Positions 49,273 to 64,000 of a stretch of DNA of 64,000 bases are shown in pieces; position 1 is the stretch's first letter; each line of letters opens with the position of its first letter. Source of the stretch: Bacteroidota bacterium (GTDB taxonomy: Bacteria; Bacteroidota; Bacteroidia; Flavobacteriales_E; Vicingaceae); contig JABFGJ010000012.1 in NCBI GenBank assembly GCA_013112545.1, positions 1-64,000 on the forward strand. The letters are read 5' to 3'. Position numbers and translations under genes: made by a program. The notes beneath the pieces were generated by a model. That model made no database searches. It saw only the letters and a program-made list of their open reading frames with translations, and was not told the origin of the DNA.

Positions 49273-49992
49273 CTATTTTAATAATTGTGTTTCTAATTCT
49301 ATTGCTCTTGGAAACAAGATATTATTTTCGAGGTGAATGTGTTGATGCAGGTCGTTTTCAAACTCTTCGAGTAGTTTATACGATACCATATAAGTATTAC
49401 ATGCATACTCCGGTGGAGTATATCCACTACTTAATCTACTTATTTCACTCATGTTATTTCCAACCATATCATGCTCAACTTCCATCATTTTTATTGGATT
49501 TTTGATGGTTCCAAAATGTGGTTTTGCTAAATCAGTTCCCAATGCTTCACTGTTTGCCATTTCTTTGATATAAGCAAACAAGGTCATTTCTTCTTTTTGC
49601 ATGTGTTGCTCTAATTCGTCAGCCACTGTATTAAAGAGAGCCAGTATTTCTTTTAACTCTGGATTATGTGCTCCATGCACTTTGGCTACTTTATTTAAAT
49701 ATTGACTCAATGTAACAATGGTGGTTCTTACATAAGTATGGTGCTTGTCTTCTATGTAATTCACCAGTCGATTTAAATCCCAATTATTAAATTGATCTTG
49801 CTGAGGATTGCTGCCTTTTTCGATTTCTAAAAGGTCTTGTAAAAGCTGATTCTTATTTATTCCTTTGGATTGGCAAGCTGCTTCTATGGTTTTTCCACCT
49901 CCACAACAAAAATCTATATTGTATTTCTTAAAAACTGTAGCAGTTCTATAATCAGATGCCACTATATTACCGATATGATCTGTCAAATCCAT
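49273..49992 (-). CDS. ric: Iron-sulfur cluster repair di-iron protein Ric (ScdA/YtfE)
   Basis: Cytoplasmic di-iron protein induced by nitric oxide and involved in repair of damaged Fe-S clusters. The N-terminal DUF542/ScdA_N domain has the hallmark FCCGGGKTIEAAC (C29/C30); the hemerythrin-type domain shows the His/Glu iron-ligand pattern (EDKHHTYVR, VHGAHNPE, HMQKEEMTLFAYI, EHDMVGNNM, LHQHIHLENNILFP). 239 aa, typical. An ATGAT-N4-GTCAT box and a TAATTTCG element lie correctly spaced upstream, which fits NO or anaerobic induction. Confidence 0.92.
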   Translation of the reverse strand: MDLTDHIGNIVASDYRTATVFKKYNIDFCCGGGKTIEAACQSKGINKNQLLQDLLEIEKGSNPQQDQFNNWDLNRLVNYIEDKHHTYVRTTIVTLSQYLNKVAKVHGAHNPELKEILALFNTVADELEQHMQKEEMTLFAYIKEMANSEALGTDLAKPHFGTIKNPIKMMEVEHDMVGNNMSEISRLSSGYTPPEYACNTYMVSYKLLEEFENDLHQHIHLENNILFPRAIELETQLLK

Positions 49993-50060: not shown

Positions 50061-50244
50061 AAATGGATTTCAGTCCGCTTTAGAAAGCCTTTCCGCATGG
50101 GTTATTTGTAAAAAAATATGTTATGAATTACGAATAAAAGGCTTCACAATTTAGCCTAAAACCATCATGAAATAAAGGGTAAAGTATGACCTGACTCATT
50201 TATTTTTAATGAACTGCGTTGTTCCTTTGTTGAAAATTTTATTG

Positions 50245-51792
50245 ATGGAACAACTTAAGATTTTCGATTTCAAACAAGAAAGGATAAGAACTCTACATTA
50301 TACCTGGATTGCGTTTTTTGTTACCTTTTATTTGTGGTTTAACATGGCTCCTTTAGCCACTACAATGCTTTCGTCCATTGATTGGCTTACGAAAGAACAC
50401 ATAAAGATACTTGCCATTTGCAATGTGGCTCTGACCATTCCAGCAAGAATATTAATTGGAACTTTAACAGACAAATATGGCCCAAGAAGGGTTTTTTCTG
50501 GACTATTAATTTTTATGTCCATTCCGGTTTTCTTTTTTGCCTTTGGAACCACCTTCATGCAATTAATGATTTCTCGTTTAATTCTTGGATCTATAGGTGC
50601 GGGCTTTGTAATCGGAATAAAAATGATGGCCATTTGGTTTCCTAAAGAAATGATAGGTAGAGCAGAAGGCTTTTATGCAGGTTGGGGAAATTTTGGGTCT
50701 GCTTGGGCAGCGATGACCCTCCCTTGGTTTGCAATTACAGTTTGTGAAAAATGGCTTGGCTTAGGAGAAGATTCTTGGAAATATGCACTCGCAGTCAATG
50801 GACTTGTTTCACTGGTTTATGGCATTATGTATTATTTCTTAGTGAAAGACAGCCCTCCAGATAAACAAATAAAGTTTACACAAAAAGCTGAACCAATGAG
50901 GGTTACTTCTTATGGAGACCTCATTCAATACATTGTTTGGTCTTTCCCATTAGTTGGAGCAATGGGATTGCTTGCTTGGAGGCTAGGAAGCATAGAGGTA
51001 AATGGACAAGAATTGTTCTCAAACAATGTGCTTTATATCATCTATGCCATCCTGGGCTTAGTTTATATTGGGCATGTCGCAAAAGTTTTACAAACCAACC
51101 TACCCGACTTAAAAGCAGGTATTCCTGAAAACAAAAAATACTCTTGGGGTAGTGTTGCTGCTCTAAATAGCACCTATTTTGCCAATTTCGGTGCAGAATT
51201 AGCAGTCGTTTCTATGCTGCCCATGTTTTTTGAATCCGTATTTATAGGATTAACCGACTCAAGTGGAAACCACATTATGACAGCAACTATGGCCGGAATG
51301 GTTGCAGCATCTTTTGCAGTTGTAAACTTAATTGCTCGCCCCTTAGGTGGTTACTTATCAGACAAAATGAAAAACCGCAAAAGAACCATGCTCATTTATA
51401 TGATAGGGATAACCATAGGGTTCTTCTTTATGGCATTAATTGGAAAATACGGCCCCATAGAAGACGGTGTGCAAACGATAGTTCCCATGTTTGATGGAGT
51501 TTGGTGGTTAGTTGTAGCCGTAATCATAACAATTATTTGCTCCATGTTTGTTCAAGGGGCAGAAGGGGCAACTTTTGCCATTATACCTATGATTAAAAGA
51601 GGAATGACTGGGCAAATAGCTGGAATGGCTGGAGCTTATGGAAATGTAGGTGCGGTAGTTTACCTAGTAATTTACTCTTTAGTAGATGCTAAAACTTTTT
51701 TCTACATCATAGCTGGTGGTGCAGCATTAAGCTTTTTGTATTGTCTCTTTTTCTTAAAAGAACCAGAAGAAGCATTTAGCGACGAATATTAA
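50245..51792 (+). CDS. narK: Nitrate/nitrite transporter NarK (MFS), first copy
   Basis: Major facilitator with about 12 transmembrane helices (515 aa from this start). FFVTFYLWFNMAPLATTM in the first helix, RILIGTLTDKYGPRRVFSG in loop 2-3, the nitrate signature GWGNFGSAWAAMTLPW in helix 5 and GMAGAYGNVGAVVYLVIYSLV in helix 11 identify the NNP/NarK group. ATG 50245 (MEQLKIFDFKQERIR) is preferred because NarK proteins of this phylum start similarly; the in-frame ATG at 50209 would add MNCVVPLLKILL. Followed 34 nt later by a second narK. Confidence 0.92.
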   Translation: MEQLKIFDFKQERIRTLHYTWIAFFVTFYLWFNMAPLATTMLSSIDWLTKEHIKILAICNVALTIPARILIGTLTDKYGPRRVFSGLLIFMSIPVFFFAFGTTFMQLMISRLILGSIGAGFVIGIKMMAIWFPKEMIGRAEGFYAGWGNFGSAWAAMTLPWFAITVCEKWLGLGEDSWKYALAVNGLVSLVYGIMYYFLVKDSPPDKQIKFTQKAEPMRVTSYGDLIQYIVWSFPLVGAMGLLAWRLGSIEVNGQELFSNNVLYIIYAILGLVYIGHVAKVLQTNLPDLKAGIPENKKYSWGSVAALNSTYFANFGAELAVVSMLPMFFESVFIGLTDSSGNHIMTATMAGMVAASFAVVNLIARPLGGYLSDKMKNRKRTMLIYMIGITIGFFFMALIGKYGPIEDGVQTIVPMFDGVWWLVVAVIITIICSMFVQGAEGATFAIIPMIKRGMTGQIAGMAGAYGNVGAVVYLVIYSLVDAKTFFYIIAGGAALSFLYCLFFLKEPEEAFSDEY

Positions 51793-51826
51793 CAATAGTA
51801 ACATTTAACAAATAATTCAAACAATT

Positions 51827-53452
51827 ATGTCAGTTAACATTAGTAAATGGGAAGTAGAAGACAGTTCATTTTGGGAATCTACTGGTAAAAAAATAGCAAA
51901 CCGTAACTTATGGTGCTCTATACCTGCACTACTTCTCTCTTTTGCCATTTGGATCATGTGGGGAGTCTTAATAAAATACATGAAAGAATTTGGCTTCTCA
52001 TTTGGCATGATGGACGGATTAGTAGCTGGAACGGATGAATATCTATCAACATTAAAAGAGGTAAATAATTTATACTATACCTTACCCGCCATTGCTGGAT
52101 TAGCTGGTGCAACGTTAAGGTTACCAAACTCATTCTTAATATCTTTAGGTGGTGGTAGAAATGTAATTTTTACAACTACAGCTTTATTATTAATTCCTGC
52201 TATTGGCACTGGAATAGCTTTAGGAAATATAAACACTCCTTATTTATTCTTTGCATCTATGGCACTACTTTCAGGTTTCGGTGGCGGAAATTTTGCCTCA
52301 TCCATGAGTAATATCAGCTTCTTTTTTCCAAAGAAAATACAAGGGTATTCTTTAGGCATGAATGCTGGTTTGGGCAATTTAGGTGTGGGTGTTATGCAAA
52401 AATTAATTCCTATTGTAATCACTTTTTCTATTTTTGGTGGAACTGCAGGAAGCATTGCTACTGCTAAAGGCGCACCATTTGAAGGATTGCAAAATGCAGC
52501 TTGGGTGTGGGTGCCATTAATTGTCTTGTCTTCCATTTTCGCCTTTTTCGGAATGAATAATGTTTCTACAGGAACACCTAGCCTTCCTTCTACTTCAAAA
52601 GGAATATCCAAAACACTATATATGGTTGCTTTAGGCTTAATTGCTGCTGCAATAGGAGCTTGGCTACTAATTGGCTTACCTTGGGACAATTGGGGGTTAA
52701 ATAATTTAGCCATGTGGATAGTTCTTCCCATCGTAATTATTCTATCTGTGGTTTTCATGAAACACGCCACACCCAGCGAAATTAAAACCAATTTAAAAAA
52801 GCAGTTTTCCATTTTAGGCGACAAACACAATTGGATTATGACTACCATTTATACCATGACCTTCGGCTCATTTATAGGCTATTCAATGGTATTTCCAAAA
52901 CTAGCACAAGATATTTTTGTTTACTCTAATCCTGCAGACCCAGAATGGATTAATCCCAATGCCCCAAACATAATGTTATGGGCATTTTTAGGGCCAATTA
53001 TTGGCGCCTTGGTTCGTCCTGTTGGCGGCATTCTATCTGATAGAGTAAATAGTGGCTCTAGAGTTACTGCATGGAGCACAATTATTCAAATTATAGCTGC
53101 ATTGGCAGTAGCCTACTTTGTTATTCAAGCTAAAGAGGCTAGTTCGCCAGAACAATATTGGTGGCCATTTTTTGCCTGTTTTATGGTTTTATTCCTCAGC
53201 ACTGGAATTGGAAATGGCTCGACATTTAGAAGTATTCCTTATATATTTTCTAAAGAAAAAGCAGGGCCTGTTCTTGGTTGGACTTCAGCCATCGCGGCTT
53301 ATGGAGCATTCATAATCCCTATAGTTTTTGGTCAACAGGTTCAAGCTGGGCATGCAGAATATGCGCTCTACGGATTTGCCATTTATTACTTAATTTGTTT
53401 AGGCTTAAACTGGTGGTATTACGATAGAAAAAACTCAGGCATTAAGTGTTAG
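51827..53452 (+). CDS. narK: Nitrate/nitrite transporter NarK (MFS), second copy
   Basis: 541-aa NNP-type transporter with about 12 helices. IPALLLSFAIWIMWGVLI (helix 1), GGGNFASSMSNISFFFPKKIQG and MNAGLGNLGVGVMQKLIPI (helix 5 signature) and RPVGGILSDRVNSGSRVTAW are typical. Differs clearly from the preceding narK, and the two are likely of the NarK1 and NarK2 types that cooperate as nitrate/proton symporter and nitrate/nitrite antiporter in other bacteria; which is which is not assigned. Same operon as the first copy. Confidence 0.92.
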   Translation: MSVNISKWEVEDSSFWESTGKKIANRNLWCSIPALLLSFAIWIMWGVLIKYMKEFGFSFGMMDGLVAGTDEYLSTLKEVNNLYYTLPAIAGLAGATLRLPNSFLISLGGGRNVIFTTTALLLIPAIGTGIALGNINTPYLFFASMALLSGFGGGNFASSMSNISFFFPKKIQGYSLGMNAGLGNLGVGVMQKLIPIVITFSIFGGTAGSIATAKGAPFEGLQNAAWVWVPLIVLSSIFAFFGMNNVSTGTPSLPSTSKGISKTLYMVALGLIAAAIGAWLLIGLPWDNWGLNNLAMWIVLPIVIILSVVFMKHATPSEIKTNLKKQFSILGDKHNWIMTTIYTMTFGSFIGYSMVFPKLAQDIFVYSNPADPEWINPNAPNIMLWAFLGPIIGALVRPVGGILSDRVNSGSRVTAWSTIIQIIAALAVAYFVIQAKEASSPEQYWWPFFACFMVLFLSTGIGNGSTFRSIPYIFSKEKAGPVLGWTSAIAAYGAFIIPIVFGQQVQAGHAEYALYGFAIYYLICLGLNWWYYDRKNSGIKC

Positions 53453-56050: not shown

Positions 56051-56782
56051 ATGCAAATTAATATGCAACGTAAGAGGCCCATAGAAATTCCTTCATGCAA
56101 AGACTGTAAAGGTCGCTCCAAAAGTAAACTATTTTGCAATCTTTCAGCAAACGAATTAGATAAACTTTCTGAGGAGAAGGGTGATAATTTTTACAAAAAG
56201 GGACAAGTTATTTTTTACGAAGGTAACAGAGGTCACGGTTTATATTGCATTCACGAAGGTAAGGTTAAGGTTCATAAACTAGGCGATGAAGCTAAGGAAC
56301 AAATTATTCGCTTAGCCAATAAGGGTGAAGTACTGGGTTATCGTTCACTTTTAAGTAATGAGCCTTACAATGCAACAGCAACAGCTCTTGAAGATTGCGT
56401 CATTTGTTATTTACCTCGAAGCAAATTCATGGAATTGTTGGGCAGCAATAATGATCTTTCATTTAAAACGATTAGCCTTTTAACCGATGATCTCAGAAAT
56501 TCGGAAGACAAAATCATCAGCATCACTCAAAAAACTGTGATTGAGAGAATTACTGAAGCAATACTAGTTCTAAAAGAAAAATTTGGACTAGATGATGATG
56601 GGAAAACGCTCAGTGTGACTTTGACCAGAAGAGAAATTGGAAACATAGCCGGAGTCACAACAGAAACAACCATAAGAACACTTTCGGATTTAAAAAAGAG
56701 TGGTATAATCAATCTAAATGGCAAACAAATCGAAATCCTCAATTTGGCTAAATTAACTCGCCTATCTAACATCGTCAATTAG
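56051..56782 (+). CDS. FNR-like regulator with candidate [4Fe-4S] cysteines
   Basis: Crp/Fnr-family regulator of 243 aa. N-terminal cysteines C16, C19 and C29 (CKDC, then KLFC) precede NLSANELDKLSEE, which lines up with the E. coli FNR start after C20, C23 and C29; C119 in ALEDCVICYLPR lines up with FNR C122. The cNMP-type beta-roll follows, then the HTH (LTRREIGNIAGVTTETTIRTLSDLKKSG). The recognition helix keeps Glu and Arg (FNR E209, R213) but has Ile where FNR has S212. A direct O2-sensing role is inferred. A good candidate to bind the four ATGAT boxes. ATG 56051 or the Met at codon 5 could be the start. Confidence 0.82.
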   Translation: MQINMQRKRPIEIPSCKDCKGRSKSKLFCNLSANELDKLSEEKGDNFYKKGQVIFYEGNRGHGLYCIHEGKVKVHKLGDEAKEQIIRLANKGEVLGYRSLLSNEPYNATATALEDCVICYLPRSKFMELLGSNNDLSFKTISLLTDDLRNSEDKIISITQKTVIERITEAILVLKEKFGLDDDGKTLSVTLTRREIGNIAGVTTETTIRTLSDLKKSGIINLNGKQIEILNLAKLTRLSNIVN

Positions 56783-56896: not shown

Positions 56897-57544
56897 ATGG
56901 ACATACTACACATATTAGAAGATTATTGTAGCAAAAATGAATTAGATTTAATTAAATTCAATGCCCAAGAAGTAGTCTATAGTGAAGGAGAAAAAGCTAA
57001 AGGTGTATATTTCTTAAAAGAAGGGCAGGTCAAAGTTTTTAAGTACGATCGGGAAAGAAAACCTATATTCTTATGGACTGCCAGACCAGGAGAACCCATT
57101 GGCTTAGTTTCATTTTTTCAAAATACGAGTCTCTATTGCTGTACGGTTAAGGCAAATCACACTGAGCCATCTCTTTACTTTCTTCCAAATAAAGTTTTTT
57201 TAGACTTGTTGAATCAGCACCCAGAATTGAAACTAAAGCTTTTGAAAAGACTTTGTGAAGGAATCAGCTTTATGGAAATGAGGTCGAAATATTTTTTATT
57301 TAATAGCATCGATGAACGCATCATTGAAACATTAATATTTCTTGCCAATAGAGAAGGTGAAAAGAAATTGAATTTGCGTTTCGAGTTTTCCATGAAAGAT
57401 TTTACCGAGATGGTAGGCGCATCTTTAGGTTATATTAGAAAAAGAGTAAAAAACTTAAAAAACAAGGAGTTGATTGATTATGGGAGAAACTGGCTCGTAA
57501 TTAACGACCTAGAAAAGCTAAAGTTAGCGAGAAATAATTTTTAG
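56897..57544 (+). CDS. Crp/Fnr-family regulator without cluster cysteines (DNR/NnrR-like candidate)
   Basis: 215-aa regulator with a cNMP-type beta-roll (VVYSEGEKAKGVYFLKEGQV, GEPIGLVSFFQ), dimerisation helix (HPELKLKLLKRLCEGISFMEMR) and C-terminal HTH (FSMKDFTEMVGASLGYIRKRVKNLKNKELID). It lacks the N-terminal Cys set, so it is not an O2-sensing FNR. Its place 17 nt before norC suggests a nitric-oxide or nitrogen-oxide responsive role like DNR, but the HTH (SLGYIRKR) is unlike the ETTIR helix of the first regulator, so it probably reads another site. Confidence 0.78.
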   Translation: MDILHILEDYCSKNELDLIKFNAQEVVYSEGEKAKGVYFLKEGQVKVFKYDRERKPIFLWTARPGEPIGLVSFFQNTSLYCCTVKANHTEPSLYFLPNKVFLDLLNQHPELKLKLLKRLCEGISFMEMRSKYFLFNSIDERIIETLIFLANREGEKKLNLRFEFSMKDFTEMVGASLGYIRKRVKNLKNKELIDYGRNWLVINDLEKLKLARNNF

Positions 57545-57561
57545 TTTAAATTTTTATCATT

Positions 57562-57984
57562 TTGAATAAGCAACTTATTTTTTTCTTCCTTTTCGTTCTC
57601 TTCATCATCTATTCTTTTAGCGTATATTTTTCTGGAACTACTTATGATAAAGGAATTTCGCACTTCACTACAGAAGCAAAGTTGGGCAAGAAATTATTCC
57701 AAGAGAAAAACTGCATTTCTTGTCATCAAATATATGGTTTGGGCGGATACATGGGTCCTGAACTAACTAACATCATTTCTTATAGAGACAATGACGAATC
57801 TATAGCAAGGGCTTTTCTTAAAGGTGGTACTGCTAAGATGCCCAATTTTCAACTGAATGATGAAGAGATTGATGCATTAATTTCTTATTTAAAATACATA
57901 GATAAAGCTGGGAATTACCCACCAAAAGCTTATGAAATAACACCATATGGAACTGTAAATGAAATTGTAACAGATGAAAAATAA
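57562..57984 (+). CDS. norC: Nitric oxide reductase cytochrome c subunit NorC
   Basis: Membrane-anchored monoheme cytochrome c that passes electrons to the NorB-type subunit. N-terminal anchor helix (LIFFFLFVLFIIYSFSVYF), heme site C51-I-S-C54-H55 followed by GLGGYMGPELTN, and axial Met M93 in KMPNFQLNDEEIDALISYL, all standard for NorC. 140 aa. The start is TTG: upstream in-frame codons back to the stop hold no ATG. Overlaps norB by 11 nt. No norQ or norD in the window. Confidence 0.9.
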   Translation: MNKQLIFFFLFVLFIIYSFSVYFSGTTYDKGISHFTTEAKLGKKLFQEKNCISCHQIYGLGGYMGPELTNIISYRDNDESIARAFLKGGTAKMPNFQLNDEEIDALISYLKYIDKAGNYPPKAYEITPYGTVNEIVTDEK

Positions 57985-59290
57985 TCAAGGCTTTCCATTT
58001 TTAATTGCAGGTATTTTGGCTTTGGGCTTAGGTATGTTCATAGGAACACTGGCAGCTTTTCAATTTATTATTCCCGATTTTTTTGAATTGCTTCCATTCT
58101 TTAAATCTCGACCACTACATGTCTCATTGGTCGTTTCTTGGATCTTTCTTTGTGCCATAGGTGGCATCTATTATTACCTTCCAACCTATTGTAGGTTACC
58201 TTTGTTTTCTTCACGTTTAGTAAAGGCTCATTTTATTATTTTTATTGCAACTGGTTTAGCAATTATTACAAGCTACTTGCTCGGAAAATTTGGAGGAAGA
58301 GAATATTGGGAATTTCCTCCTATACTGTCCATTCCAATCATTATTTCTTGGGTATTATTCGGAGTCAATTTCTTTAAAACTGTTTTTCGTAAAAAAGGTA
58401 AATGGCCTGTTTATTTGTGGATGTGGGCAACTGGAATTGTATTCTTTTTTATCACATATTTAGAAGCGAATCTGTGGTTAATCCCCTTCTTTGGTGACAA
58501 CATTGTGCGCGAAATAACCATACAATGGAAAGCTTATGGCGCATTAGTTGGTTCTTGGAATATGCTGGTTTATGGCACTGCCATTTTTTTAATGGAAATG
58601 ATTAGTAAGAATTCAAGCCTCGCCAAATCCAACATGTCTTATTTTCTTTATTTTTTAGGACTTACAAACTTGATGTTTGGTTGGGCGCATCACACTTATT
58701 TAGTTCCTTCTGCTCCGTGGATAAGATATTTCGCTTACGGAATTAGCATGACTGAACTGTTCATACTCGCCAAAATAATCTGGGATTGGAAAAGTTCGCT
58801 TTCAAATGCATTAAAATTTAAACATCATATTGCCTATAAATTTCTGTTAAGCTCTGAAATATGGATTTTTCTAAATCTGATATTGGCTTTGCTAATTTCT
58901 ATACCAGCCATTAATTTATTTACTCATGGCACACACATTACTGTTGCACACTCTATGGGTAGTACTATTGGTATAAATTCCATGATATTACTAGCCTCTT
59001 TGTTTTTTATTATTCAAGAAAATTCGGAGAAAGCAATCGGGTCTAATGTATTGAAAACTGGGATTTGGCTGGCAAACATTTCCTTGTTGGTTTTTTGGAT
59101 TAGCCTTATTGGAGCTGGGTATTTAAAAGGAACTTTAAGCTTTGGAAGCGATTTGACTTTTCAGGAAATTATGGAGAAACTTAGCCCCTATTTGATCTCA
59201 TTTGGGATAGCAGGAATATGTCTTTTTATTGGAATGTGTGTTATATTATGGGTTGCTCTTACTCACCTTTTGGCGCTTAGAAAAAAATAA
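57974..59290 (+). CDS. NorB-like heme-copper oxidase family protein lacking several catalytic ligands
   Basis: Twelve-helix protein, 438 aa, partner of NorC. Conserved: H49 in RPLHVSLVVSW (low-spin heme ligand of helix II), H239/H240 in FGWAHHTYLV (two FeB ligands of helix VII), and THGTHITVAHSMG with H326 in the place of the high-spin heme ligand. Changed against P. aeruginosa NorB: helix VI reads QWKAYGALVGSWN, so FeB ligand H207, E211 and E215 fall on Tyr188, Val192 and Asn196, and the second low-spin heme ligand H349 falls on Met328. No other His is found in helix VI. The frame is intact, so it is not an obvious pseudogene. It is either a new NorB-like clade or a protein with altered function; NO reductase activity should not be assumed. 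Confidence 0.75.
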   Translation: MKNNQGFPFLIAGILALGLGMFIGTLAAFQFIIPDFFELLPFFKSRPLHVSLVVSWIFLCAIGGIYYYLPTYCRLPLFSSRLVKAHFIIFIATGLAIITSYLLGKFGGREYWEFPPILSIPIIISWVLFGVNFFKTVFRKKGKWPVYLWMWATGIVFFFITYLEANLWLIPFFGDNIVREITIQWKAYGALVGSWNMLVYGTAIFLMEMISKNSSLAKSNMSYFLYFLGLTNLMFGWAHHTYLVPSAPWIRYFAYGISMTELFILAKIIWDWKSSLSNALKFKHHIAYKFLLSSEIWIFLNLILALLISIPAINLFTHGTHITVAHSMGSTIGINSMILLASLFFIIQENSEKAIGSNVLKTGIWLANISLLVFWISLIGAGYLKGTLSFGSDLTFQEIMEKLSPYLISFGIAGICLFIGMCVILWVALTHLLALRKK

Positions 59291-62092: not shown

Positions 62093-63052
62093 TTAAGTAG
62101 TAGGCTTTTTACCAAAGAAATGAGCTCTTGAGTTTCTAATTGATTTTCTTCCCCAATTCCAAATTACTAATTGATAACCTCTCCACGTATAGTCTATAGG
62201 TGCTACCAAAAAGTGCATGTAGCGAGTAAATGGAATAATTGCAATTAAACCAAAGGCAGAAATAATGTGAATTTGAATTAACCAAGGCATTGCACTTACT
62301 GCTGCAATATCAGGATTAAAGGCAAACAAAGATCTCAAATAAGGTGTGAGAACTCCCGCAAACCAAGATGAACCCCAACGCACAAAATACGCTACTCCCA
62401 AACCAGAAACAATTTGAACTAGCAAGGTTGTATAAACCAACATGTCCATTTTATTACTGACTACCAAAATTTGAGAATTTGTCATCCTTCTTTTGATAAG
62501 CAATACTAAACCTGTTAGTGCTGCAAGTGCAAAAACAAATGAAGAAACTTCAAGTATAAGCAAGCGAATGGGTTCACCATTCCAAGCTAAAACAGATTGT
62601 GGAAATAGGAAGGCAATCAAGTGACCAAAGAATAATACTAAAAGTCCCCAGTGGAAAGGTTGGCTTCCCCAGAATAATTTCTTTCTCTCTAAAAACTCTG
62701 AAGATAATGAAGAAACTTGAAAGCCTCTAGATTTGTATCTGTAAATAGATCCCATCAAAAAGATAGCTAATGCGAGGTAAGGAAATATTAAAAATACGAC
62801 CTCGTTTAGCATGCCTACATTATTCTCCAATCCTATCTTTAACAAGTAAATAATCACTGAAGCTGTAGCAATCATTATTAAAAACACATGAAAATGTTTC
62901 ATTGGTTTGGATTCTATATAGCCTCCACTTTCCCTTACCACATTCCGTGCTCTAATAACTAACTTAATAGCATAATAAACTATAATAGCTGTAATTGCTA
63001 ATAGTCCATAAAGCATAAATTTTCCAAAAAGTTCAACTGTAAGTAACATCAT
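62093..63052 (-). CDS. narI: Respiratory nitrate reductase gamma subunit NarI, with N-terminal extension
   Basis: Membrane cytochrome b that takes electrons from quinol to NarGH. The four heme ligands of E. coli NarI are present at H134 (QPFHWG), H144 (FFGHLIA), H262 (IQIHIIS) and H280 (RYMHFLVAPIDY). The NarI-like part starts near residue 85 (FLIFPYLALAIFLMGSIYRY). The first 80 residues add two further transmembrane helices (about 10-32 and 55-72), making it 319 aa against about 225 in E. coli. Overlaps narJ by 4 nt and ends the nar operon. Confidence 0.92.
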   Translation of the reverse strand: MMLLTVELFGKFMLYGLLAITAIIVYYAIKLVIRARNVVRESGGYIESKPMKHFHVFLIMIATASVIIYLLKIGLENNVGMLNEVVFLIFPYLALAIFLMGSIYRYKSRGFQVSSLSSEFLERKKLFWGSQPFHWGLLVLFFGHLIAFLFPQSVLAWNGEPIRLLILEVSSFVFALAALTGLVLLIKRRMTNSQILVVSNKMDMLVYTTLLVQIVSGLGVAYFVRWGSSWFAGVLTPYLRSLFAFNPDIAAVSAMPWLIQIHIISAFGLIAIIPFTRYMHFLVAPIDYTWRGYQLVIWNWGRKSIRNSRAHFFGKKPTT

Positions 63053-63744
63053 GTTTTTATTGTTTTGTTTGTACTACTTGTAAATGAACAGCTTCCGCAA
63101 TCTTCCTCACTAAATCCAACCAATGATGGACTTAGTATTGCTTCGCGTTCTGAATAATTAACTCCTTCAAAATCTTTATGAAGAACTTTCAATAAAGCTT
63201 GTAAGGCATTTTGGTATATATTCCCATTTGCGACATCTTCTAAAATCATCGCTTTTTGTTTCTTTTTAATCACATTTTTCCTAGCTTCCATTCTCTTGGT
63301 CTGAAATTCATTAAGCATTTGTTCTAATGCAGGAATAACAGCTCTCACAGTTAGTTCGTTAATAAATTCTTCATCATTAGAAATGGCCATTAATTTTAAA
63401 ACATGAGGTAAATTATCAGCGAGTTCTTCACCACAATCATGTCCTATTTTTGCTTGTTCTTGCTTCATATTCACCAAGAATTCTCCTCTAGAATAATCTT
63501 CTCGAAACAACACATAGCCAATATCAAGAAAACAAATTGCTTGTATGTGAAACGTGACCCCAAAGATTTCTTCAATATCGTAAAGACTATTGCTTTGAAC
63601 AAAATCATTAAACCGTTCTAAGGAGGATGCAGCATCTGGATAATGTGTTTCCAAATACTCCATACACTTTCCTACTTTCAATTTGTAATCCCATTTAGGA
63701 TATACAAATAATTCGGATAACATTATGTATTGTTCTTTATTCAT
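63049..63744 (-). CDS. narJ: Nitrate reductase assembly chaperone NarJ
   Basis: Cytoplasmic chaperone (TorD/NarJ family) for cofactor insertion into NarG. LSELFVYPKWDYKLKVGKC at the N-terminus, the EIFGVTFHIQAICFLDIGYVLFREDYSRGEFL region (counterpart of the TFDLQRRRSLHL-type motif), and the DNLPHVLKLMA stretch support it. 231 aa. ATG 63744 overlaps the narH stop (TGATG); the TTG one codon earlier is not needed. A Cys pair near the end (EDCGSCSF) is unusual. Confidence 0.85.
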   Translation of the reverse strand: MNKEQYIMLSELFVYPKWDYKLKVGKCMEYLETHYPDAASSLERFNDFVQSNSLYDIEEIFGVTFHIQAICFLDIGYVLFREDYSRGEFLVNMKQEQAKIGHDCGEELADNLPHVLKLMAISNDEEFINELTVRAVIPALEQMLNEFQTKRMEARKNVIKKKQKAMILEDVANGNIYQNALQALLKVLHKDFEGVNYSEREAILSPSLVGFSEEDCGSCSFTSSTNKTIKT

Positions 63745-64000
63745 CAAAGTCCTCTTTGTGGTTTTTCTTTAAATCCAAAACCTGTTTCACCTTTATAATC
63801 TGCTGTTGCTTCCATCATTTCTATCGCTTCTTCTCTATGCGAAGGTGGAATTACGAAACGCTCATCGAAAGTTGCTAATGAAGTTAATCTAAAAATAGCA
63901 TTTGCAGTATCTGCGCTTACTTTGGCTACAGCCATCAATTCTTTTACTTCGTCTTTAGACAAATCACCTACAGTCACATTTCTACGATGCATTTTTACTG
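63744..64000 (-). CDS. narH: Respiratory nitrate reductase beta subunit NarH (C-terminal part, cut by window edge)
   Basis: The last 84 codons or so of an Fe-S electron-transfer subunit. The frame stays open to the right edge, so the Met at 63992 is internal. The visible part (ANAIFRLTSLATFDERFVIPPSHREEAIEMM) is typical of NarH C-termini, and the order narH-narJ-narI confirms it. The Fe-S cluster region and narG must lie beyond 64000. Confidence 0.85.
   Translation of the reverse strand, partial: VKMHRRNVTVGDLSKDEVKELMAVAKVSADTANAIFRLTSLATFDERFVIPPSHREEAIEMMEATADYKGETGFGFKEKPQRGL

What the first reader, a model, noticed from the sequence alone, without database searches (positions are those of the whole stretch)
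57974..59290. NorB-like protein without helix-VI FeB ligand, without catalytic glutamates, and with Met for a heme His
Against P. aeruginosa NorB, H207, E211 and E215 align with Tyr188, Val192 and Asn196, and H349 aligns with Met328 in the gapless match THGTHITVAHSMG. The other histidines (H49, H239, H240, H326) remain. NorC next to it is fully canonical and the frame is intact, so decay is unlikely. It may be a distinct NO-reducing or NO-converting clade, or an electron-transfer protein with His/Met heme.
Basis: partly seen in the sequence, partly recalled or inferred. Interest (0 to 1): 0.75.

Follow-up and report, generated by a model that had tools for sequence, protein, structure and literature searches.

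The report
NO-reductase relative with dismantled metal site
Many Bacteroidota bacteria carry a two-part relative of the enzyme that turns nitric oxide into nitrous oxide, but with part of its metal-binding site missing in every copy read here, so it may be a differently built nitric-oxide enzyme in organisms that are otherwise counted as having none.

Summary
Two alignments pair P. aeruginosa NorB H207/E211/E215/H349 with Tyr188/Val192/Asn196/Met328. In a 70-row family alignment Met328, Asn196, H49, H239, H240, E261, H318 and H326 are the same in 69 of 69 readable rows; position 188 is never His. The family ("X") is its own clade (100/98, 100/99) beside cNOR, qNOR, NO dismutase and CcoN, found mainly in Bacteroidota, with a NorC-like cytochrome c that has its own loop signature. 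The host genome has narI, nirK and nosZ but no other NOR found. X is in 46 of 198 genomes of the class, 35 with nosZ (OR 10.6; 27 of 31 X genera). NorD, part of the machine that inserts FeB into cNOR, was found in 0 of 43 X genomes without cNOR. Best reading: a cytochrome c-linked NO-converting complex, most likely an NO reductase without the canonical FeB site and with a His/Met heme b. Activity is unproven; known catalytic glutamates are gone. No description was seen in the paper listings searched; the main NOR-diversity paper was not held.

The parts
57974..59290 (+). X: NorB/CcoN-fold heme-copper-superfamily subunit I, 438 aa
   Evidence: PF00115 107 bits; AF2 pLDDT 87.6, pTM 0.90; Foldseek TM (query) 0.84-0.87 to CcoN and cNOR NorB
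57562..57984 (+). NorC-like membrane-anchored monoheme cytochrome c, overlapping X by 11 nt
   Evidence: PF00034/PF13442. In 45 X loci of the class: NorC directly upstream in 43, two genes further upstream in 2 (L166, L177); in 49 of 50 named-contig loci directly upstream, the 50th starts at its contig end
58523..58561 (+). helix VI Q184-W-K-A-Y188-G-A-L-V192-G-S-W-N196: lost FeB His and both glutamates
58688..58693 (+). H239-H240, the two retained FeB-type ligands
   Evidence: 69 of 69 rows
58748..58756 (+). M259-T-E261: invariant Met and the retained equivalent of NorB E280
   Evidence: M259 and E261 in 69 of 69 rows
58949..58957 (+). H326-S-M328: heme b3 proximal His and Met in place of the heme b His
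   Evidence: H326 and M328 in 69 of 69 rows
56897..57544 (+). Crp/Fnr-type regulator, 17 bp upstream of the norC frame
   Evidence: a Crp/Fnr-type gene lies directly upstream of norC in 9 of the 39 X loci with an adjacent NorC ORF call
56051..56782 (+). Fnr-type regulator
   Evidence: NF008365 Fnr 9e-31, 107 bits, below curated cut-off 228
49273..49992 (-). RIC/ScdA-type di-iron protein
   Evidence: TIGR03652 242 bits, over cut-off
50209..53452 (+). two NarK-family transporters (50209-51792, 51827-53452)
   Evidence: TIGR00886 274 and 252 bits, below cut-off 311.7
62093..63992 (-). narI; a 232-aa ORF in the narJ position without family match; 3' end of narH at the window edge
   Evidence: TIGR00351 over cut-off for narI; TIGR01660 1.5e-6 for the narH end; narG lies outside the window and was not read

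Best explanation
X plus its NorC-like cytochrome c is a conserved, working two-subunit membrane complex of NO/N2O metabolism in Bacteroidota. Electrons enter through the cytochrome c, pass to a low-spin heme b held by His49 and Met328, and reach heme b3 (His326), where NO binds. The canonical FeB site (3 His + Glu) is not there: two His (239, 240) and Glu261 remain, so the pocket holds a two-His/one-carboxylate iron (or copper) or no metal. I think it most likely reduces NO to N2O, which NosZ then removes. Shown: the residues, the gene pair, the clade, the co-occurrence. Inferred: the electron path, the heme ligation and the reaction.
For: The altered site is fixed in 69 of 69 rows, with the Ca-site Glu (E110, 70 of 70) and NorC CxxCH (60 of 60) kept; N314 (68 of 69) and H318 (69 of 69) are kept, whose cNOR counterparts N335 and H339 matter for activity (PMC4816578, passages). 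Own genome: nirK and clade II nosZ over cut-off, no cNOR/qNOR/NOD. nosZ is in 35 of 46 X genomes against 35 of 152 others (p 1.6e-10), 27 of 31 X genera against 23 of 89 others. X lies within 15 kb of nosZ in 6 of 35 genomes with both, 0.30 expected (positions, test; three of the six are one genus, so four independent cases). RIC in 11 of 45 X stretches; NO dismutase-type genes near X in L007, L008, L023. No FeB chaperone: NorD in 0 of 43 X genomes without cNOR. A water is bound between FeB and Glu280 in cNOR simulations (PMC3431322, passages), so a direct Glu261 ligand is thinkable.
Against: The E215 equivalent is catalytic: qNOR variants there lose over 90% of activity (PMC7201271, passages); Glu211 and Glu280 are called critical in cNOR (PMC3431322, passages); X lacks the counterparts of E211 and E215. 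NorC Glu70, whose change to Gln leaves P. denitrificans cNOR at background, is Leu here. 29 of 46 X genomes have nosZ but no nirK, and none has nirS at E 1e-60, so the NO source is unclear. X is no clean substitute: 8 of 46 X genomes also have cNOR, qNOR or NOD (weak positive association, p 0.04), 5 of 17 nirK genomes have neither X nor these, 11 of 46 X genomes lack nosZ. Model confidence is low at the heme pocket (pLDDT block means 61-73 for residues 231-250 and 311-330).
Confidence: 0.45

Rival explanations
1. X oxidises or otherwise converts NO (for example to nitrite), passing electrons from heme b3 through the His/Met heme b to cytochrome c.
For: Of the three cavity glutamates below the active site only one remains, which would fit a reaction that takes up fewer protons; Met ligation usually raises a heme potential (general knowledge). 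NO dismutase-type genes sit near X in three named loci.
Against: Linkage and co-occurrence are with nosZ, an N2O consumer; Crp/Fnr-type and anaerobic-type genes surround it.
Confidence: 0.15
2. X is an electron-transfer or NO-binding (scavenging or sensing) heme protein without catalytic turnover, for example serving NosZ.
For: Lost FeB His and glutamates, no NorD, association with nosZ; a second predicted HCO-fold protein with still fewer His sits in some X operons.
Against: The heme b3 pocket keeps H239, H240, E261 and M259 in 69 of 69 rows, more than a pure electron carrier should need; 11 of 46 X genomes lack nosZ.
Confidence: 0.22
3. X is an oxygen reductase of the C family with an altered copper site.
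For: Foldseek and VIA-align place it as near to CcoN as to NorB; MbnP- and MbnH-type (copper-linked) genes in 8 of 45 X stretches.
Against: No third CuB-type His in any row; the partner is NorC-like; the setting is anaerobic N metabolism. The genome already has cbb3 (over cut-off) and aa3-type oxidases.
Confidence: 0.07
4. X is a canonical cNOR in decay, or the substitutions are an alignment error.
For: Low identity to cNOR (24-25% to L076/L077).
Against: Invariance across 68 distinct rows, open frames, two alignment methods.
Confidence: 0.02

Closest known systems
cNOR (NorCB)
   Same: NorC-NorB gene pair, fold, heme b3 His, heme b His on helix II, two FeB-type His, E280 counterpart, Ca-site Glu
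   Different: No helix VI His, no E211/E215, Met for the second heme b His, Leu for NorC E70, no NorQ/NorD, own clade
qNOR and NO dismutase (NOD)
   Same: NOR core fold; NOD too has a changed metal site
   Different: These are one-chain proteins; NOD-type proteins change one of the paired His to Asn and the E280 counterpart to Gln while keeping the helix VI His; X keeps the pair and E261 and loses the helix VI His
CcoN of cbb3 oxidase
   Same: C-family fold, similar Z-score
   Different: CcoN keeps the six-His set (seen in the P. aeruginosa sequence and in L002); X lacks two
HGHS411 family (named here)
   Same: predicted HCO fold; in some X operons
   Different: No sequence kinship detected (probability 1.5); of its His only H46 and H317 are invariant in 11 rows

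Membership tests
Heme-copper oxidoreductase superfamily | subunit I fold / PF00115 | tested here: met
   PF00115 107 bits, cut-off 34.8; Z 39-41 to cNOR and CcoN
Heme-copper oxidoreductase superfamily | six conserved His ligands | tested here: not met
   four of the six, in 69 of 69 rows
cNOR | FeB ligands H207, H258, H259, E211 | tested here: not met
   only the H258/H259 pair is kept
cNOR | two His for heme b | tested here: not met
   Met328 in 69 of 69 rows; ligation itself not measured
cNOR | NorC cytochrome c subunit | tested here: met
   NorC-like gene at every X locus with readable upstream DNA (45 of 45 class loci, 49 of 50 contig loci), with Leu for Glu70
cNOR | NorQ/NorD for FeB insertion | tested here: not met
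   none in 45 X loci; NorD in 0 of 43 X genomes without cNOR. Control: all 7 cNOR clusters read have both, but 6 of these 7 NorD sequences built the profile
cNOR | falls in the cNOR clade | tested here: not met
   separate clade, 100/98 and 100/99
cNOR | reduces NO to N2O | not testable with these tools
   needs an assay
NO dismutase | FeB-pair His to Asn and Glu to Gln (PMC3413370, passages) | tested here: not met
   X keeps H239-H240 and E261
cbb3 oxidase CcoN | CcoN equivalog score | tested here: not met
   TIGR00780 52 bits, cut-off 583; the genome's own CcoNO scores 650
eNOR/sNOR/gNOR/nNOR/bNOR | membership of the B-family-related NOR groups | not tested
   no reference sequences at hand; described as related to B-family oxidases (PMC11388526, passages), while X matches C-family proteins and cNOR best

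The most novel reading that the evidence does not exclude
X is an undescribed class of cytochrome c-dependent NO reductase that works with a two-His/one-carboxylate (or copper) centre, or heme b3 alone, and a His/Met heme b; it is the missing NOR of many nosZ-bearing Bacteroidota now filed as lacking nor.
Probability: 0.4. Interest if true: 0.88.

Novelty: new variant of a known kind. Interest (0 to 1): 0.74.

Why it matters
A genome survey finds nir and nosZ without nor in 9% of Bacteroidota with denitrification genes and suggests NO reduction by others or Nor-independent routes; it curated out candidates lacking conserved ligand domains (PMC12569097, passages), so X would probably have been dropped (inference). 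If X makes N2O, some of these bacteria are more complete than thought, and N2O budgets based on nor counts change. Chemically it would be a natural test of how much of the NOR metal site is needed to join two NO.

Tried and rejected
Fnr boxes (TTGATNNNNATCAA, one mismatch): 12 in the window against 8.6 expected, none between 56000 and 57600; no support. NrfA in the own genome: no match. A His from another helix at FeB: no other helix has an invariant one. The AF2 models came without coordinates, so ligand distances could not be measured. X as a clean complement of cNOR was rejected. X against the HGHS411 family by profile: probability 1.5, so no sequence kinship is claimed.

Trees: the first held wrong reading frames and only one NOR row and was discarded. 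Searches left out six of the 14 fetched CcoN-like rows (three misread or aa3-like, three redundant), NOD rows L112 and L116 and the fragment L128, and the aa3 row; one search also lacked qNOR (pattern missed it), and one search dropped seven X rows to save time.

Limits: 'other NOR' in the counts means cNOR, qNOR and NOD (profile A2, E 1e-40); B-family-type NORs were not searched outside the own genome. 3 of the 17 nirK matches are below the family cut-off. Fisher tests carry no phylogenetic correction beyond collapsing to genus. Neighbourhood counts rest on longest-ORF calls and are lower bounds (the nosZ of G044 was missed that way), and the stretch for G121 (L156) starts past X. The NorD profile was built from 6 of its 7 positive genomes, so only its absences are informative. 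Flavodiiron and Hcp-type NO reductases were not searched in the own genome. Names such as NrdJ, QueD, ModABC and NorQ/NorD rest on domain hits and gene order; the numbering of NorB ligands and the axial-Met role in NorC are recalled knowledge, as is the role of Met ligation.

Literature: six searches aimed at prior descriptions showed none in their listings; four others served side questions. Seven papers were seen as passages only. Murali et al. 2024 is not held, so prior mention there cannot be excluded.

Full report
What is there. Window 57974-59290 (+) encodes a 438-aa protein (X) that overlaps by 11 nt a NorC-like cytochrome c gene (57562-57984). X matches PF00115 (107 bits) and, far below cut-off, CcoN models; among solved structures it matches CcoN and cNOR NorB about equally by sequence and by predicted fold. 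The pair follows two Crp/Fnr-type regulators and lies among NarK-type transporters, RIC, moaA, a molybdate-type ABC transporter and narI.

The residues. MAFFT to P. aeruginosa NorB and a profile-profile alignment to 7 Bacteroidota cNOR give H207->Y188, E211->V192, E215->N196 and H349->M328, with H60, H258, H259, H347 and E280 kept as H49, H239, H240, H326 and E261. In the family alignment (70 rows, window protein twice, one row too short at these columns) M328, N196, Q184, W185, K186, H239, H240, M259, E261, H318 and H326 stand in 69 of 69 rows; position 188 varies (Y45/N18/G4/A1/L1) but is never His. Two of the six signature His and two of three cavity Glu are lost as a fixed trait.

The partner. 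In 60 X-linked NorC proteins CxxCH is kept in 60 and the loop Tyr in 52, but the residue at cNOR NorC Glu70 is Leu in 60, and in 40 of 40 readable rows of a second, overlapping set. In P. denitrificans cNOR the Glu-to-Gln change here leaves background activity (PMC4816578, passages). Of 45 X loci of the class, 43 have this NorC directly upstream (one with masked bases in the heme motif) and two of one genus have it two genes further up; of 50 named-contig loci 49 have it directly upstream and one starts at the contig end.

The clade. Trees of 50 and 47 proteins put X in one clade (100/98, 100/99) with a long stem, apart from cNOR, NOD, CcoN and (second tree) qNOR; in the second, cNOR, qNOR and NOD group (99/98) without X. 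Long branches meet at the base, so X's sister is unsure. Of 54 relatives in named genome contigs 50 carry Bacteroidota labels; the others read Rhodospirillales, Ardenticatenales, Azovibrio and 'uncultured bacterium'. The Azovibrio locus is nearly the same as a Bacteroides-labelled one, so misbinning is likely there; transfer is not excluded for the rest. X is in 46 of 198 genomes drawn from the class and 8 of 395 drawn from the phylum, two of these 8 as fragments.

Genome setting. The own genome (24 contigs, estimated 100% complete) holds three PF00115 proteins: an aa3-type subunit, a CcoNO fusion over its cut-off, and X. It has NirK and clade II NosZ over cut-off, no NrfA, no NirS at E 1e-60 and no match to the cNOR/NOD profile. 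Over 198 genomes NosZ is in 35 of 46 X genomes against 35 of 152 others (Fisher p 1.6e-10), and in 27 of 31 X genera against 23 of 89 (p 3.6e-9). X lies within 15 kb of nosZ in 6 of 35 genomes with both (0.30 expected), three of them one genus. Of 17 NirK genomes 4 have X alone, 4 have X and another NOR, 4 another NOR alone and 5 neither. X can thus fill a NOR gap but is not its general complement, and 29 X genomes have NosZ without NirK.

The FeB machinery. NorQ and NorD are required to insert FeB into cNOR, while qNOR needs none (PMC9976466, passages). All 7 Bacteroidota cNOR clusters read here carry a NorQ-type ATPase (CbbQ/NirQ/NorQ domain, tested in 2) and a NorD-type VWA protein; BLAST with three pairs of these found none in 45 X loci. 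A NorD profile matched 7 of 50 genomes, exactly those with cNOR (4 without X, 3 with X), and 0 of 43 X genomes without cNOR; since 6 of the 7 built the profile, the absences carry the weight. This agrees with the residues: X has no canonical FeB, or loads a metal without NorQD, as qNOR does.

Neighbours. In 45 X loci: Crp/Fnr 19, proline dehydrogenase 15, tryptophanase-type lyase 15, RIC 11, ribonucleotide reductase 10, QueD-type 10, MbnP 8, MbnH 8, NadA 8, NadB 8, HGHS411 7, Rrf2 6, NosZ 5. NO dismutase-type genes (paired His to HN, Q for the E280 counterpart) lie near X in L007, L008 and L023; the same signature was seen in six class genomes, four of which have X.

Mechanism. Shown by sequence: the electron-entry subunit, the Ca-site Glu and the heme b3 proximal His are kept; FeB ligation is halved; a heme b ligand is Met. 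Inferred: electrons run cytochrome c -> heme b (His/Met) -> heme b3; NO binds heme b3; H239, H240 and E261 may hold a metal, since a water sits between FeB and Glu280 in cNOR simulations (PMC3431322, passages), and M259 offers a ligand for copper. Against: the E215 equivalent is needed for over 90% of qNOR activity (PMC7201271, passages). I give NO reduction 0.45, with non-catalytic and NO-oxidising roles as rivals.

Known or new. Surveys report nosZ-bearing Bacteroidota without nor (PMC4250227, passages: nosZ-only Bacteroidetes, 24 genomes, 17% with nor; PMC12569097, passages). I saw no paper on this clade in the listings of six searches, but the key NOR-diversity paper was not readable.

Noticed in passing
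L150:10577-11809 (-); also in L143, L149, L155, L169, L170, L175, L026, L048, L049, L053, L056: A membrane protein family without Pfam, NCBIfam or PDB sequence match folds as a heme-copper oxidase subunit I (AF2 pLDDT 87.2; Foldseek TM 0.75 to CcoN, probability 1.00), but only H46 and H317 among its His are invariant in 11 rows: perhaps a one-heme HCO-fold protein. It lies directly upstream of norC-X in 3 of 39 loci with an adjacent NorC call.
   Followed up: partly
L007:13546-15876, L008:13463-15793, L023:11963-14275 (-): NO dismutase-type proteins (HN in the FeB pair, Gln for the E280 counterpart) encoded within about 5 kb of X.
   Followed up: partly
L124 (G057): A qNOR-like protein with Tyr in place of the heme b His (HGY); three related ones (L125-L127) keep His. 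All four read QGLN where cNOR, NOD and X read HGT.
   Followed up: no
L133-L177: Recurrent neighbours of X with no obvious link to NO: proline dehydrogenase, tryptophanase-type lyase, NadA/NadB, a QueD-type protein, ribonucleotide reductase.
   Followed up: partly
L134, L149, L154, L166, L169, L175, L176, L177: MbnP- and MbnH-type gene pairs near X.
   Followed up: partly
window 63049-63747 (-): A 232-aa ORF in the narJ position has no Pfam (E 1e-3) or NCBIfam (E 1e-5) match.
   Followed up: no
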